DNA of 64,000 nt from Actinomycetota bacterium (GTDB taxonomy: Bacteria > Actinomycetota > Thermoleophilia > Solirubrobacterales > Solirubrobacteraceae), in contig VAYS01000040.1 of the NCBI GenBank assembly GCA_005883215.1, positions 1-64,000 of the forward strand, read 5' to 3'. Positions 14,807-60,045 of the stretch are shown one piece after another (the stretch's first letter is position 1; every line of letters begins with the position of its first letter). The position numbers and the translations under genes are program-made. The notes below the pieces were generated by a model that searched no databases, was not told where the DNA came from, and saw nothing but the letters and a program-made list of their open reading frames with translations.

Positions 14807-14927
14807 CGAGCCCCGATCCTACCCTGCCCGGCTGCGGACCGGCGGGCGCCGGCGATAGCAGCCCCCGGGGCCGAGCCGGCGCCGTCGACGCCCGGGCCCG
14901 GGCGCTATCGTGCGCCACGCACCGCAT

Positions 14928-16674
<1,747 letters not shown>

Positions 16675-54915: not shown

Positions 54916-54949
54916 GAGCGCGGGGCCCTCTGGCACAATGGCGCGCCCT

Positions 54950-55315
54950 ATGCGCCTGTTCGCGCTGCGCGGCGCCACCACCGTTGCGGACAACGAAGCT
55001 CAGACGATCCGCGACGCCACCGCCGAGCTGATCCGCCGGATCGTCGAGGTCAACCAGCTCGAAGCCGACGCCGTGGTGAGCTGCATCTTCACCGCGACCG
55101 ACGACCTAGACGCCGAGTTCCCGGCCGTCGCCGCGCGCGAGCTCGGCTTCCAGCGCGTGCCGCTGCTGTGCGCCCGGGAGATGGGCGTGCCGGGCTCGCT
55201 GCCCCGCGTGATCCGCGTGCTCATCCACTACTACGCGCCCGAGGGGCACGCGGCGCGCCACGTCTATCTGGGCGAGGCCCGGGCGCTGCGCACCGACCTC
55301 GACGCCGCCCAGTAG
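54950..55315 (+). CDS. aroH: Chorismate mutase, AroH type
   Basis: 121 residues, the monofunctional AroH class (trimeric, B. subtilis type). MRLFALRGATTVADNEAQTI, VSCIFTATDDLDAEFPAVAARELG, VPLLCAREMGVPGSLPRVIRVLIHY and VYLGEARALRTDL are signatures holding the active-site Arg and Cys positions. It converts chorismate to prephenate for Phe and Tyr. The ATG at 54950 matches family starts; an ATG four codons earlier (54938) overlaps a CACAAT -10-like element. First of the aromatic amino acid group. Confidence 0.93.
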   Translation: MRLFALRGATTVADNEAQTIRDATAELIRRIVEVNQLEADAVVSCIFTATDDLDAEFPAVAARELGFQRVPLLCAREMGVPGSLPRVIRVLIHYYAPEGHAARHVYLGEARALRTDLDAAQ

Positions 55316-55408: not shown

Positions 55409-56488
55409 ATGGCCCTCGAGTTCTCCCAGGCGGTGCGCCGGATCCCGGTCTACCCGGCCGCCGAAGGTTACGGCGACTCCGACTCCCTGGCCCGGCTGGC
55501 CTCCAACGAGTCCGCCGAGCCGCCCCTGCCCGAGGTCGTGCGCGCGGCCACGCGCGCCCTGGGCTCTCTCAACCGCTATCCCGACCCCACCAATGCCGAG
55601 CTGCGGCGCGCCCTGTCGGACCGCTACGACGTGCCCGCCTCGCGCATCGCGATCGGCAACGGCTCCTGCGACGTGCTGCTGGCCGCGGGCGAGGCCCTGC
55701 TCGAGCCCGGCGCCGAGGTCGTCTACGCGTGGCCGTCGTTCTCGGTCTATCCCCAGCTGAGCGCGGCCACCGGCGCGCGGGCGATCACCGTCCAGCTCGA
55801 CACCGAGCAGCGCCTGGACCTCGACGCGATGGCCCGCGAGGTGACGGTCGCCTGCCGCCTGGTGATCGTCTGCAACCCCAACAACCCGACCAGCACCGCG
55901 GTGAGCACCGAGCGCGTGGCGGCCTTCCTGGAGCGGATTCCGCCGCACGTGTGCGTGATCGTCGACGAGGCCTACTGCGAGTTTCGCACCGACGAGGATC
56001 CCGACTCGAGCCTCGACCTCCTCGCCCGGCATCCGAACCTGGCGCTGCTGCGCACGTTCTCCAAGGTCTACGGCCTGTGCGGGCTGCGGGTCGGCTTTGC
56101 CCTGTGCGGCTCAGAGGAGCTGCCCCGCGCGCTCGATCAGGTCCGCCAGCCGTTCTTCTGCAACGCCGTGGCCCAGGCCGCCGCCACCGAGGCGCTCAAG
56201 CACCAGGACGCCGTCGCCGACCGCGTGGTGCGTACGGTCGCCGCCCGGATCGAGATGGACGAGCGTCTGCGCGCCCTGGGCCTCGCGCCCGCCGATTCGC
56301 AGGCGAACTTCTGCTGGTTTGACCTGGGCGAAGGGCGCGACGAGGACGAGGTCGTGCGCGGGCTGGGCGAGCGGGGCGTGCTCGTCCGGGCCGGCTCCTC
56401 GCTCGGGCGACCCGGCGCGCTGCGGGTGACCTACGGCCTGCCCGAGGAGAACCGTCGCCTGGTGGACGCGCTGGGAGAACTGCTGTAG
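55409..56488 (+). CDS. hisC: Histidinol-phosphate / aromatic aminotransferase
   Basis: 359 residues, class II aminotransferase. RLASNESAEPPLPEVVRAA, RYPDPTNAELRRALSDRY, GNGSCDVLLAAGEAL, VCNPNNPTST, VDEAYCEF and RTFSKVYGLCGLRVGF with the PLP Lys at 219 are HisC signatures. Placed between aroH and aroF-tyrA-aroA, as in some bacilli, it probably also aminates phenylpyruvate or hydroxyphenylpyruvate (inference from context). CACAAT lies 6 nt before the ATG with no Shine-Dalgarno, so the transcript may be leaderless. Confidence 0.9.
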   Translation: MALEFSQAVRRIPVYPAAEGYGDSDSLARLASNESAEPPLPEVVRAATRALGSLNRYPDPTNAELRRALSDRYDVPASRIAIGNGSCDVLLAAGEALLEPGAEVVYAWPSFSVYPQLSAATGARAITVQLDTEQRLDLDAMAREVTVACRLVIVCNPNNPTSTAVSTERVAAFLERIPPHVCVIVDEAYCEFRTDEDPDSSLDLLARHPNLALLRTFSKVYGLCGLRVGFALCGSEELPRALDQVRQPFFCNAVAQAAATEALKHQDAVADRVVRTVAARIEMDERLRALGLAPADSQANFCWFDLGEGRDEDEVVRGLGERGVLVRAGSSLGRPGALRVTYGLPEENRRLVDALGELL

Positions 56489-56518
56489 CCGCGCGGCGCT
56501 TCTGCTACAAACGAGTTG

Positions 56519-56638
56519 ATGCGCGCCGCCGTCACGACCGCCTCTTCGATTTCCTCCGAGCGCAGATCGGCCGCGCGCGCCCGCCCCGGTGCGTCCCTGA
56601 CGGCACCGCGCTACCTGCGCTATTGGCGATTTAGCTAG
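56519..56638 (+). CDS. Aromatic-rich leader peptide upstream of aroF
   Basis: 39 codons from ATG 56519. The first 30 residues are Ala/Ser/Arg-rich, and the peptide ends RYLRYWRFS before TAG at 56636. Two Tyr, one Trp and one Phe fall within seven residues immediately before the stop and hairpins, which is the pattern of an attenuation leader for aromatic amino acids. No strong Shine-Dalgarno is seen. It lies 30 nt past hisC and 157 nt before aroF. Confidence 0.78.
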   Translation: MRAAVTTASSISSERRSAARARPGASLTAPRYLRYWRFS

Positions 56639-56756
56639 GCGCTCGGCCGTCGACCGCCGCACGCGGCAACCGCCGCTGCCGAGCGCCGCTCCCACCGCGC
56701 ATCGCGCCAGCTGACCGGCCGATGCACGGGCCCGCCCCACGCGGCATGGGCCCCGT
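56638..56756 (+). promoter_or_regulatory. Attenuator-like hairpins between the leader peptide and aroF
   Basis: Three stems are readable. Stem 1: GGCGCTCGGC (56638-56647) with GCCGAGCGCC (56678-56687), 10 perfect pairs starting at the leader stop codon. Stem 2: CCGCGCATCG (56695-56704) with CGATGCACGG (56720-56729), 9 pairs and one mismatch. Stem 3: ACGGGCCC (56726-56733) with GGGCCCCGT (56748-56756), 8 pairs and one bulge. Stems 2 and 3 share 56726-56729, so they exclude each other, as antiterminator and terminator do. CCTTTCTCCT follows stem 3. Confidence 0.65.
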
Positions 56757-56795
56757 CCGTAACCTTTCTCCTACCTCGCAGAAGGGGGTGTGCAG

Positions 56796-57631
56796 ATGAT
56801 GATCGTGATGAAACCGACGGCCACCGAGGAGCAGATCGAGGCCGTCGTGGAGCGCGTCCAGAGCGTCGGCGCCCGCGCCCACATCAGCCGGGGGGCCGAG
56901 CTGACCCTGATCGGCGCCATCGGTGACCGCGAGCTCGTGGCGCGCCTGGAGCTGGAGGGAGCGCCCGGCGTCGAGGAGGTCGTCCCGATCTCCCGGCCCT
57001 ACAAGCTGGCGTCGACGCAGCTGAAGGCCGGCCAGCGCAGCGTGTTCGAGATCAGCGGGCGCCGCGTGGGCGGCGATAACTTCACCCTGATCGCCGGCCC
57101 GTGCACGGTCGAGTCGCGCGACCAGACGCTCGAAACCGCGCGGATCGCCAAGGAGGGGGGCGCGTCGATGTTCCGCGGCGGTGCCTGGCCGAGGTCGGGC
57201 GCAGCGGGCGCCCGGCGCTGCTCAAGCGTGCCGTGTCGGCCACCCTGGACGAGCTGCTGATGGCCGCCGAGTACATCCTCAAGGAGGGCAACGACCAGGT
57301 GCTCTTGTGCGAGCGCGGGATCCGTACGTTCGAGACCTCGCATCGCCGCGCCACCCTCGACCTGATGGCGGTGCCGGTGCTCAAGGAGCTGTCGCACCTG
57401 CCCGTGATCGTCGACCCCAGCCACGCCGCCGGGCGCCGGGATCTGGTCGGGCCCCTGTCGCTCGCCGCTGCCGCCGCGGGCGCGGACGGCATCATCGTCG
57501 AGATCCACCCGGCGCCCGAGGAAGCGATCTGCGACGGGCCTCAGCAGCTGCGGGCCGATTCCTTCGCCGAGTACGCGGCCCAGGTCGAGCGGGCGGCGGG
57601 CTTGGCGGGCAAAGCGCTCAGCACCGTCTAG
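56796..57631 (+). pseudogene. aroF: 3-deoxy-7-phosphoheptulonate synthase (type I beta), with internal deletion and frameshift
   Basis: DAHP synthase, first step of the shikimate pathway. The first frame has the ferredoxin-like N-terminal domain (MIVMKPTATEEQIEAVVERV), PYKLAS, then FTLIAGPCTVESRDQTLETA and GGASMFRGGA. At 57183-57187 it breaks. YKPRTSPYSFQG and the following 50-60 residues are missing. Sequence resumes in another frame with LAEVGRSGRPALLKRAVSATLDELLMAAEYI, LLCERGIRTFE and IVDPSHAAGRRDLV, stopping at 57631. As sequenced it cannot be a working enzyme. GAAGGGGG precedes the ATG. tyrA begins 3 nt later. Confidence 0.85.
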
Positions 57632-57634
57632 CCC

Positions 57635-58705
57635 GTGCGCGTCGCGGTCGTGGGCGTCGGGCTGATCGGCGGGTCCATCGGCCTGGCGGCTCGCCAGCGC
57701 CTGGAGGCGCGGGTCACCGGCTATGACCACGACCCCGGGGTGCTGGCCCAGGCGGCCGAGAAGGGCGCGATCGACGCGGCGGGAGCCGACGTGGCCGAGG
57801 CGGTGACTGGGGCCGAGCTCGCCTTCGTAGCGGTGCCGGTTGGCGCGCTGCCCGCCACCGTCGAGCAGGTGCTGGCCGCGGCGCCGGCCGACTGCGCGGT
57901 CACCGACGTGGGGTCGACCAAGCGACCGGTGCGCGCCGCCGCGCTCGACGAGCGCTTCATCGGCGGCCATCCCCTGGCCGGCGCCGAAACCTCCGGGGTC
58001 ATGAATGCGCGTGCCGACCTGTTCGAGGGCGCGACCTGGTACCTGACGCCGGGCGAACGGGCCTCGGGCGTCCTCTACGAGCGCCTGCACCGGGTGCTGG
58101 CGGCGCTGGGGGCGCGACCGGCGGCAATCGACTCCGAGACGCATGACCGGGTCATGGCCAGCGTCTCGCACCTGCCCCACGTGATCGCCAACGTGCTGGT
58201 GGGCCAGGCCGCCGGGACGCTGAGCGAAGGAGGCGAGCGCATGCCCGCCACGGGCCCCAGCTTCCGCGATGCCACACGGGTGGCGGGGGCCAACGGCGCG
58301 GTCTGGACCGACATCTACCTCTCCAATCGCGACGCGCTGGCCGCCGAGATCGAGGAGACGATCAGGCGGCTGGGCGCGGTGCGCCAAGCGCTGGCCAGCG
58401 CTGACGCTGGGGCGATCGAGCGCTGGAACGACACTGCCGGCGAGCACCGCCAGGCCCTGCTGGAGGTGGGGCTGGCCGGCGGGCCGGTGCGCGAGCTGCG
58501 CGTGTTCGTGCCCAACCGTCCCGGCGTGATCGCCGAGATTGCGCTGGCGCTTGGCCGCGCCGGCGTGAACGTGGTCGACATGGCGCTCTCACCGGCCGAC
58601 GACTTCAGCCGCGGGGTGGTGGCCCTGTGGGTGCGCGGCGATAGCGACGCGGCGCGGGCTCAGGAGTTGATCGCCGCCCTCGACTTCCCGGTGCTGCCCG
58701 CGTGA
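57635..58705 (+). CDS. tyrA: Prephenate dehydrogenase with ACT domain
   Basis: 356 residues from a GTG 3 nt after aroF. The NAD(P) motif VAVVGVGLIGGSIGLAARQ opens the chain. VTDVGSTKRPV, FIGGHPLAGAETSGVMNARADLFEGATWYLTP, DRVMASVSHLPHVIANVL and FRDATRVAGAN are TyrA signatures. Residues about 285-356 form an ACT domain (RELRVFVPNRPGVIAEIALALG), which usually senses Tyr. It oxidises prephenate to hydroxyphenylpyruvate. The stop overlaps aroA as GTGA. Confidence 0.94.
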   Translation: MRVAVVGVGLIGGSIGLAARQRLEARVTGYDHDPGVLAQAAEKGAIDAAGADVAEAVTGAELAFVAVPVGALPATVEQVLAAAPADCAVTDVGSTKRPVRAAALDERFIGGHPLAGAETSGVMNARADLFEGATWYLTPGERASGVLYERLHRVLAALGARPAAIDSETHDRVMASVSHLPHVIANVLVGQAAGTLSEGGERMPATGPSFRDATRVAGANGAVWTDIYLSNRDALAAEIEETIRRLGAVRQALASADAGAIERWNDTAGEHRQALLEVGLAGGPVRELRVFVPNRPGVIAEIALALGRAGVNVVDMALSPADDFSRGVVALWVRGDSDAARAQELIAALDFPVLPA

Positions 58706-60045
58706 GCACCCGCGGCGTGCGCTTTGCCCCCGGCGGGCGTCTGCGCGGCCAGTTCACGCCCCCGGCCGACAAATCGATCTCACACCGGGCCGCCATCCTC
58801 GGTGCGATGGCGTCTGAGCCGGTGCGGATCGCCAACTTTCTCGCGGCGGCCGACACCGCCTCCACCCTCGACGCCATCGACATCCTGGGGGCCCTCGTCG
58901 AACGACGCGACCACGAGTTGGTGGTGCGGGGGACCGGTCTGCGCGAGGCGCGCGAGCCCGACGCGCCCATCGACGTGGGCAACTCGGGCACGCTCATGCG
59001 CCTGCTGGCCGGGTGGTTGGCCGGCCAGGGCGGCGGGCGCTGGACGCTCGACGGCGACGCCTCGATCCGCCGGCGCCCGGTGGATCGGATCGCCGAGCCG
59101 CTGCGCCAGATGGGAGCCGAGATCGAGGCTCGCGACGGGCGCTACCCCCCGTTCACCGTTCACGGCGCGTCCCTGAAGGGGATCTCCTACGAGATGCCGG
59201 TGGCCAGCGCGCAGCTCAAGTCGTGCCTGTTGCTCGCCGGCCTGGCCGCCGACGGCAACACCGAGGTGGTCGAGCCGGCGCCCAGCCGCGACCACACCGA
59301 ACGGCTGTTGAGGGCGGCGGGGGTGACGGTCGAGCGCGACGGCCCGCAGCTTTCGGTGACCAACTGCGACGAGCTGGTGCTGGACCGGGTCGAGGTTCCC
59401 GGCGATATCTCCTCGGCGGCGTTCATGATCGTCGCCGCCCTACTCGTGGCCGGTTCGCGGCTGGAGGTGCACGGGGTGGGGGTCAACTGGACCCGCTGTG
59501 GCCTGCTGCGGGTTATCGAGCGCATGGGCGGCATCGTGCTGGGCGAAGTCGAGTCCCCCGAGCAGGCGGCCCCCGACCGCGAGCCGCTGAGTGACCTCGA
59601 CGTGGCCGCCGCTCCGTTGGTGGCCACCGAGGTCGGGCCCGACGAGGTGCCGTTGCTGATCGACGAGCTCCCGCTGGTCGCGCTGCTGGGCTGCTTCGCC
59701 GACGGGGACACGGTGGTGCGCGGCGCCGGAGAGCTGCGGGTCAAGGAGTCCGACCGCATCGCGGGCGTCGTGGACGGTCTGCGGGGGCTGGGGGCGCGGA
59801 TCGAGGCGCATGAGGACGGCTTCGTGGTCTCCGGCACCGGCGGGCTGCGCGGGGGGCTCCTGGACTGCGCCGGCGACCACCGCCTGGCCATGCTCGGCGC
59901 GGTGGCCGGACTCGCCTCGCGCGAGGGGGTTGAGGTGCTCGACATGGACGCGGCGGCCGTCTCCTACCCCGGCTTCGTCGAGGATCTGGCCGCGCTGGCC
60001 CAATCCGGGCCCCACCTGGGCGAGGCGGGCGGGAAGCGCGCCTAG
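58702..60045 (+). CDS. aroA: 3-phosphoshikimate 1-carboxyvinyltransferase (EPSP synthase)
   Basis: 447 residues. FTPPADKSISHRAAILGAMA (substrate Lys-Ser), VGNSGTLMRLLAGWLAGQ, DASIRRRPVDRIAEPLRQMGA, VASAQLKSCLLLAGLAADG, VPGDISSAAFMIVAALLV and ELRVKESDRIAGVVDGLR are EPSPS signatures. It joins shikimate-3-phosphate with PEP. The first motif (NSGTLMRLLAG rather than NAGTAMR) places it with class II-like enzymes, which can be less glyphosate-sensitive; that is a family trend only. GTGA overlap with tyrA. Confidence 0.95.
   Translation: MSTRGVRFAPGGRLRGQFTPPADKSISHRAAILGAMASEPVRIANFLAAADTASTLDAIDILGALVERRDHELVVRGTGLREAREPDAPIDVGNSGTLMRLLAGWLAGQGGGRWTLDGDASIRRRPVDRIAEPLRQMGAEIEARDGRYPPFTVHGASLKGISYEMPVASAQLKSCLLLAGLAADGNTEVVEPAPSRDHTERLLRAAGVTVERDGPQLSVTNCDELVLDRVEVPGDISSAAFMIVAALLVAGSRLEVHGVGVNWTRCGLLRVIERMGGIVLGEVESPEQAAPDREPLSDLDVAAAPLVATEVGPDEVPLLIDELPLVALLGCFADGDTVVRGAGELRVKESDRIAGVVDGLRGLGARIEAHEDGFVVSGTGGLRGGLLDCAGDHRLAMLGAVAGLASREGVEVLDMDAAAVSYPGFVEDLAALAQSGPHLGEAGGKRA

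What the first reader, a model, noticed from the sequence alone, without database searches (positions are those of the whole stretch)
56519..56795. Tyr/Trp/Phe leader peptide with mutually exclusive hairpins before aroF
A 39-codon frame ends RYLRYWRFS just before its stop. A perfect 10-bp stem begins at that stop, and two further stems share four bases and so compete. This is the layout of ribosome-stalling attenuation, here placed before DAHP synthase, the entry to the aromatic pathway, and sensitive to all three aromatic amino acids at once.
Basis: partly seen in the sequence, partly recalled or inferred. Interest (0 to 1): 0.75.

Follow-up and report, generated by a model that had tools for sequence, protein, structure and literature searches.

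The report
Aromatic-sensing leader peptide before DAHP synthase
In front of the gene for the first enzyme of aromatic amino acid synthesis lies a tiny gene, found across one order of soil bacteria, whose last codons call for all three aromatic amino acids and whose stop codon opens an RNA hairpin; it very probably switches the enzyme by where ribosomes stall, but it lacks the paired switch of textbook attenuators.

Summary
The 39-codon leader (56519-56638) ends RYLRYWRFS, and a perfect 10-bp stem starts at the G of its UAG. The DNA core TGGCGATTTNNNTAGGCG occurs once per genome in 122 of 172 genomes in three families of the order (my count), and 124 of 125 distinct copies precede a DAHP synthase, of two different types (Ibeta and Ialpha). 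Upstream codons are aromatic-rich only in the leader frame (25.7% against 4.5% and 1.1%). Trp and Phe codons are always present and Tyr in 123 of 124 leaders. In 63 loci found through hisC, with any synonymous codon allowed, Arg was CGA 63/63, Phe UUU 62/63 and stop UAG 63/63. The stem shows compensatory changes. The leader start looks leaderless.

The two further stems that share four bases are peculiar to this window. No competing stem, U-tract or hidden Shine-Dalgarno is conserved. A -10-like box lies 31-41 nt before aroF in two thirds of Ibeta members, so the leader may control only part of transcription.

Best reading: a lineage-specific ribosome-position sensor for all three aromatic amino acids, built on one hairpin. 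How the hairpin changes expression is unknown.

The parts
56503..56511 (+). Extended -10-like box TGCTACAAA of the leader; the start codon follows 7 nt later, so the transcript is predicted to be leaderless or nearly so
   Evidence: TGNTA[ACG]AN within 30 nt before an in-frame start in 78/124 leaders, 1.3% of shuffles; gap to the start 6-15 nt, mostly 7-9; SD-like sequence in only 7/78
56519..56638 (+). Leader ORF, 39 codons plus UAG, ending APRYLRYWRFS
   Evidence: homologous endings in 124 loci
56609..56632 (+). Aromatic control codons Tyr, Tyr, Trp and Phe near the end of the leader
   Evidence: Frame-specific aromatic enrichment with synonymous variation; all three aromatic amino acids covered in 123/124 leaders
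56624..56641 (+). Invariant core TGGCGATTT-AGC-TAGGCG (Trp, Arg-CGA, Phe-UUU, any, UAG, first stem bases)
56638..56647 (+). 5' arm of stem P1; its first base is the G of the stop codon
   Evidence: compensatory changes at pairs 5, 6, 8 and 4 (L077)
56678..56687 (+). 3' arm of stem P1
56695..56756 (+). Two overlapping stems peculiar to this window (sharing 56726-56729), not conserved
   Evidence: and the sequence
56760..56765 (+). TAACCT, a TANNNT -10-like box just before aroF
   Evidence: TANNNT in 54/80 Ibeta members, 17 expected, 0/80 in the neighbouring control region; no -35 box
56780..56788 (+). Shine-Dalgarno AGAAGGGGG of aroF
   Evidence: SD-like sequence before 78 aroF genes of the Ibeta set
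56796..57631 (+). aroF, type Ibeta DAHP synthase, damaged in this assembly (about 60 codons missing and a frame change near 57185-57197)

Best explanation
A cis-acting, ribosome-position sensor for aromatic aminoacyl-tRNAs that controls DAHP synthase. A leaderless 39-codon ORF is translated behind RNA polymerase. If charged Tyr-, Trp- or Phe-tRNA is short, the ribosome stops on the Tyr/Phe/Trp codons at or before the invariant UGG, about 14 nt short of the first pair of stem P1, and P1 can fold. If all three are plentiful, the ribosome runs on through CGA, UUU and the next codon to UAG, and its footprint then covers the whole 5' arm of P1. The stop codon has to be UAG because its G is the first paired base; the slow codon CGA and the UUU probably time the ribosome. 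Shown here: leader ORF, frame-specific aromatic codons, codon-level invariance, P1 with covariation, leaderless-type start, association with DAHP synthase of two types. Inferred: translation, the footprint geometry, the sign (P1 folded means enzyme on), and the output step, most likely relief of Rho-dependent or other factor-aided termination in the C-rich RNA after the leader, since no conserved intrinsic terminator exists.
For: Single genomic copy, 124/125 before DAHP synthase of two types. Frame-specific aromatic enrichment with synonymous variation. Trp and Phe in all and Tyr in 123/124 leaders. CGA 63/63, UUU 62/63, UAG 63/63 with free codon choice although CGA is about 6% of Arg and UUU 2% of Phe codons in the target genes, and CGA is 5 of 248 other Arg codons in the leaders. 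UGG replaced by UAU, another aromatic codon, in two relatives. P1 covariation. CGA is measurably slow in the Salmonella his leader (PMC4046918).
Against: No conserved competing stem or terminator, so the output step is unproven. A promoter-like box between leader and gene could bypass it. Stalling at UUU would mask part of P1, so Phe starvation need not act like Tyr or Trp starvation. Two relatives lost the in-frame UAG (L020, L204). No expression data for any member.
Confidence: 0.68

Rival explanations
1. P1 is itself the terminator of the leader transcript. Ribosomes held on the last codons (CGA, UUU, next, UAG) mask its 5' arm and let RNA polymerase read through into aroF; the box before aroF gives basal expression.
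For: P1 is the only structure present throughout; in several members fewer than 60 nt separate P1 from the aroF start, leaving no room for another terminator; a promoter-like box follows.
Against: No U-tract after P1; loops of 22-64 nt are long for an intrinsic terminator; most aromatic codons lie upstream of UGG, where a stall leaves P1 free, so starvation would lower expression, the wrong sign for a biosynthetic gene.
Confidence: 0.15
2. Nascent-peptide arrest: the ending (aromatic)-W-R-F-x arrests the ribosome at or near the stop in response to an aromatic metabolite, as TnaC does for tryptophan.
For: W-R-F is conserved to the last residues before the stop.
Against: Arrest peptides need residues, not codons, yet CGA, UUU and UAG are fixed although other synonyms are far commoner; the residue before the stop varies (S, I, T, R, M, L).
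Confidence: 0.1
3. Classical attenuator, with mutually exclusive antiterminator and terminator stems.
For: Leader, control codons and a stem masked by a ribosome at the stop match regions 1 and 2 of classical attenuators; this window has two overlapping further stems.
Against: Those stems do not touch P1 and are not conserved; no conserved partner for the 3' arm; no structure beyond chance downstream; no terminator-like site.
Confidence: 0.05
4. The conserved core is a DNA or RNA protein-binding site, and the aromatic frame is incidental.
For: Invariance at nucleotide level across the stop codon.
Against: Aromatic enrichment is frame-specific with synonymous variation; UGG changes to another aromatic codon; no conserved complementary partner for the core other than a match to conserved aroF coding sequence.
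Confidence: 0.02

Closest known systems
aroR leader of aroF in Corynebacterium glutamicum (PMC11802643, PMC4046766)
   Same: Short leader ORF with aromatic codons (Phe-Tyr-Phe) directly before a DAHP synthase operon in an actinobacterium; transcription rises under Phe limitation
   Different: Reported to respond to Phe and not Tyr; here Trp and Phe codons are always present and Tyr nearly always, with an invariant codon core and one stem starting in the stop codon. No sequence comparison with aroR was made here.
Escherichia coli trp and pheA leader attenuators (own knowledge; Rfam Trp_leader, Phe_leader)
   Same: Control codons just before the stop, and a stem arm that a ribosome at the stop masks
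   Different: No conserved competing terminator stem or U-tract; predicted leaderless start; three amino acids at once; no Rfam match
Leaderless polycysteine ORF attenuators of mycobacteria (Canestrari 2020, known here only through PMC9031893 and PMC13236596)
   Same: Leaderless actinobacterial upstream ORF with a run of cognate codons
   Different: Other amino acid and genes; described as translational, through a hidden Shine-Dalgarno, which was tested here and not found
Leader peptides without terminator before cys operons in Mycobacterium (PMC1262725)
   Same: Cognate codons near the stop and no hairpin terminator; Rho proposed
   Different: A conserved stem and codon core are present here; that survey reported no conserved RNA structures for phenylalanine or tyrosine operons in Actinobacteria

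Membership tests
Classical ribosome-mediated transcription attenuator | Leader ORF with control codons cognate to the pathway product | tested here: met
Classical ribosome-mediated transcription attenuator | Stem arm placed so that a ribosome at the stop masks it and a stalled one does not | tested here: met
   P1 starts in the UAG in 91/124 members; footprint geometry is own knowledge
Classical ribosome-mediated transcription attenuator | Mutually exclusive antiterminator and terminator sharing an arm | tested here: not met
Classical ribosome-mediated transcription attenuator | Intrinsic terminator with U-tract before the gene | tested here: not met
   window; after P1 in all members
Classical ribosome-mediated transcription attenuator | Expression rises on starvation for the cognate amino acid | not testable with these tools
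   Needs an experiment
Leaderless ORF attenuators of Actinobacteria (polycysteine type) | Leaderless start of the upstream ORF | tested here: met
   By sequence only: -10 to start spacing and lack of SD; transcription start not mapped
Leaderless ORF attenuators of Actinobacteria (polycysteine type) | Regulation through a hidden Shine-Dalgarno of the downstream gene | tested here: not met
   SD region against the P1 loop and the downstream spacer: no excess; a weak excess against the leader ORF (mean z 0.53) was not followed up
Rfam amino acid leaders, T-box, riboswitches | Match to a covariance model | tested here: not met
Nascent-peptide arrest leader (TnaC type) | Residue-level conservation near the stop | tested here: met
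   W-R-F; but codons are fixed too
Nascent-peptide arrest leader (TnaC type) | Ligand-dependent arrest | not testable with these tools
   Needs toeprinting

The most novel reading that the evidence does not exclude
An attenuator with one hairpin and no rival hairpin: the ribosome itself is the only competitor, read out by a fixed codon ruler UGG-CGA-UUU-x-UAG whose stop codon is part of the stem, sensing three amino acids at once and carried over between two different DAHP synthase families. It would be a distinct class of leader regulation confined to Solirubrobacterales.
Probability: 0.35. Interest if true: 0.8.

Novelty: new variant of a known kind. Interest (0 to 1): 0.62.

Why it matters
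It extends leader-peptide control of the entry to the aromatic pathway to an order of soil bacteria with no such element in the papers found here, shows one leader covering all three end products, and offers a clean natural case of codon-level (CGA, UUU, UAG) invariance that makes the role of slow codons and of a lone stop-codon hairpin directly testable.

Tried and rejected
Search for a conserved partner of the core UGGCGAUUU: none upstream or in the spacer; the one clear excess (GCGAUU) falls, by inspection, on the conserved aroF start codons, and the smaller one for UGGCGA was not traced further. Search for partners of either P1 arm and for a hidden Shine-Dalgarno: no excess apart from a weak one against the leader ORF, not followed up. 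A three-way-junction reading of the P1 loop: an extra hairpin next to the 3' arm is seen by eye in many own-family members but not in those with short C/U-rich loops. Stop-codon readthrough or frameshifting into aroF: spacers vary freely in length, so no frame joins them consistently. Exact core outside the order: one real copy (L088) and two single hits, one without a leader or DAHP synthase (L087) and one not followed up. DAHP synthase upstream regions of sampled genomes in the other families lack it. The whole genome was not available as a file.

Full report
What is there. The window is part of a Solirubrobacterales genome, judged by the relatives of its hisC gene. The order of genes is chorismate mutase (54938-55315), hisC (55409-56488), the leader, aroF (from 56796), prephenate dehydrogenase (57635-58705), and the ORF at 58702-60045, which I take to be aroA from its sequence. 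The leader runs from ATG 56519 to TAG 56636-56638, 39 codons, ending APRYLRYWRFS. A perfect 10-bp stem pairs 56638-56647 with 56678-56687, so its first base is the G of the stop codon.

Conservation. In the regions between hisC and aroF of relatives an ORF ends in W-R-F-x-stop in 47 of 56 loci that could be measured. The DNA core TGGCGATTTNNNTAGGCG is found once in each of 124 of 399 genomes of the class and never as the reversed control. By my count of that table this is 73 of 106 genomes of the own family, 49 of 66 in two other families of the order, none of 4 in the fourth family, and 2 of 223 outside the order. Of those two, L088 is a true leader before aroF and L087 is unrelated. A phylum sample of 397 genomes gave one further hit outside the order, not followed up. 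Of 125 distinct occurrences 124 carry the leader and precede a DAHP synthase; for one of them (L061) the contig ends too soon to see the gene there. About a quarter of the genes are of the Ialpha type (TIGR00034), the rest Ibeta (TIGR01361, the window's type). The element therefore goes with the enzyme's role, not with one gene family.

Codons or nucleotides? The 12 codons before UGG hold 25.7% aromatic codons in the leader frame against 4.5% and 1.1% in the other frames and 2.8% further upstream, with Tyr written both TAC and TAT. UGG and UUU are fixed and Tyr is present in 123 of 124 leaders, so all three aromatic amino acids are covered. The pattern search fixes the core by construction, so I repeated the test on loci found through hisC, allowing any aromatic codon, any Arg codon, either Phe codon, any third codon and any stop: 63 loci, CGA 63, UUU 62, UAG 63, UGG 61 and UAU 2. 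In the target genes CGA is about 6% of Arg codons and UUU 2% of Phe codons; elsewhere in the leaders CGA is 5 of 248 Arg codons. Tyr codons in the leaders are also unusually often UAU (GC at third position 53%, against 84% for other two-fold codons). Rare, slow codons thus seem to be selected, though shared ancestry inflates the counts. CGA was shown to be slow in the Salmonella his leader (PMC4046918). UAG is explained by P1: its G is the first paired base.

The stem. A helix of at least 9 bp anchored at that G exists in 91 of 124 members against 5.4% of shuffles, with C-G to U-A and U-A to C-G changes at pairs 5 and 6 and G-C to C-G at pair 8, and G-C to A-U at pair 4 in a Patulibacter relative. 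The 3' arms were chosen as the best helix, so counts of paired bases lean towards the stem, but changes on both sides of a pair are much less exposed to that bias. The P1 domain folds better than shuffles (mean z -3.0); with the 5' arm masked the rest does not (-0.2), nor does the RNA from P1 to the gene (0.1). No conserved partner for either arm and no clear hidden Shine-Dalgarno were found; a weak excess of pairing between the SD region and the leader ORF (mean z 0.53) was left open.

Promoters. An extended -10-like box TGNTACAAA lies before the leader start in 78 of 124 members (1.3% of shuffles), mostly 7-9 nt upstream, and Shine-Dalgarno-like sequence is rare there (7 of 78) while it is general before aroF: the leader is predicted to be leaderless. 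A TANNNT box lies 31-41 nt before aroF in 54 of 80 Ibeta members (17 expected; none in the neighbouring stretch), and the window has TAACCT at 56760-56765. No -35 box goes with it.

Mechanism. By ribosome geometry (own knowledge: the ribosome covers about 12 nt beyond the first base of the A-site codon), a ribosome waiting at UGG or earlier leaves P1 free, and one at UAG covers its whole 10-11-bp arm. Starvation for Tyr or Trp then favours folded P1; plenty keeps it open while the ribosome sits at the stop. For a biosynthetic gene folded P1 should mean 'on'. In a classical attenuator the other state would be a terminator using the 3' arm; none is conserved. The RNA from the leader to the gene is C-richer than G-rich in 84% of the Ibeta members measured, which would suit Rho, but that is common in leaders and is only suggestive. 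The output step is therefore inferred, not shown.

Relation to what is known. Leader control of aroF by Phe-Tyr-Phe is reported in Corynebacterium glutamicum (aroR; PMC11802643, PMC4046766). A survey of Actinobacteria found no conserved RNA structures for phenylalanine or tyrosine operons and described cys leaders without terminators (PMC1262725). Leaderless cysteine leaders act as attenuators in mycobacteria (PMC9031893, PMC13236596). No Rfam family matches. No paper on Solirubrobacter leader peptides turned up. I rate it a new variant of a known kind: it works like an attenuator, but two defining features of the classical class were tested and not met.

Noticed in passing
56796-57631: aroF is damaged here: residues about 138-198 of relatives are missing and the frame changes near 57185-57197. 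No other type I or type II DAHP synthase was found in the assembly, so an assembly error is likelier than a true loss.
   Followed up: partly
L087-L176, for example L051 and L104-L114: The same leader stands before two different DAHP synthase types (Ibeta and Ialpha), which suggests that the enzyme was replaced while the control region stayed.
   Followed up: partly
L020 and L204: Two relatives have lost the in-frame UAG of the leader core (CCG or CAG instead) while keeping the aromatic run; L204 also keeps a 10-bp P1.
   Followed up: partly
genomes G023, G071, G115: Several own-family genomes of only 1.7-2.1 Mb lack the core before DAHP synthase; possible loss with genome reduction.
   Followed up: no
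415-591: Cobalamin riboswitch (RF00174).
   Followed up: no
14924-15030: TPP riboswitch (RF00059).
   Followed up: no
L019 and L027: Public records titled Chlamydiae and Bifidobacterium breve carry this Solirubrobacterales gene order and leader; the records look mislabelled or misbinned.
   Followed up: no
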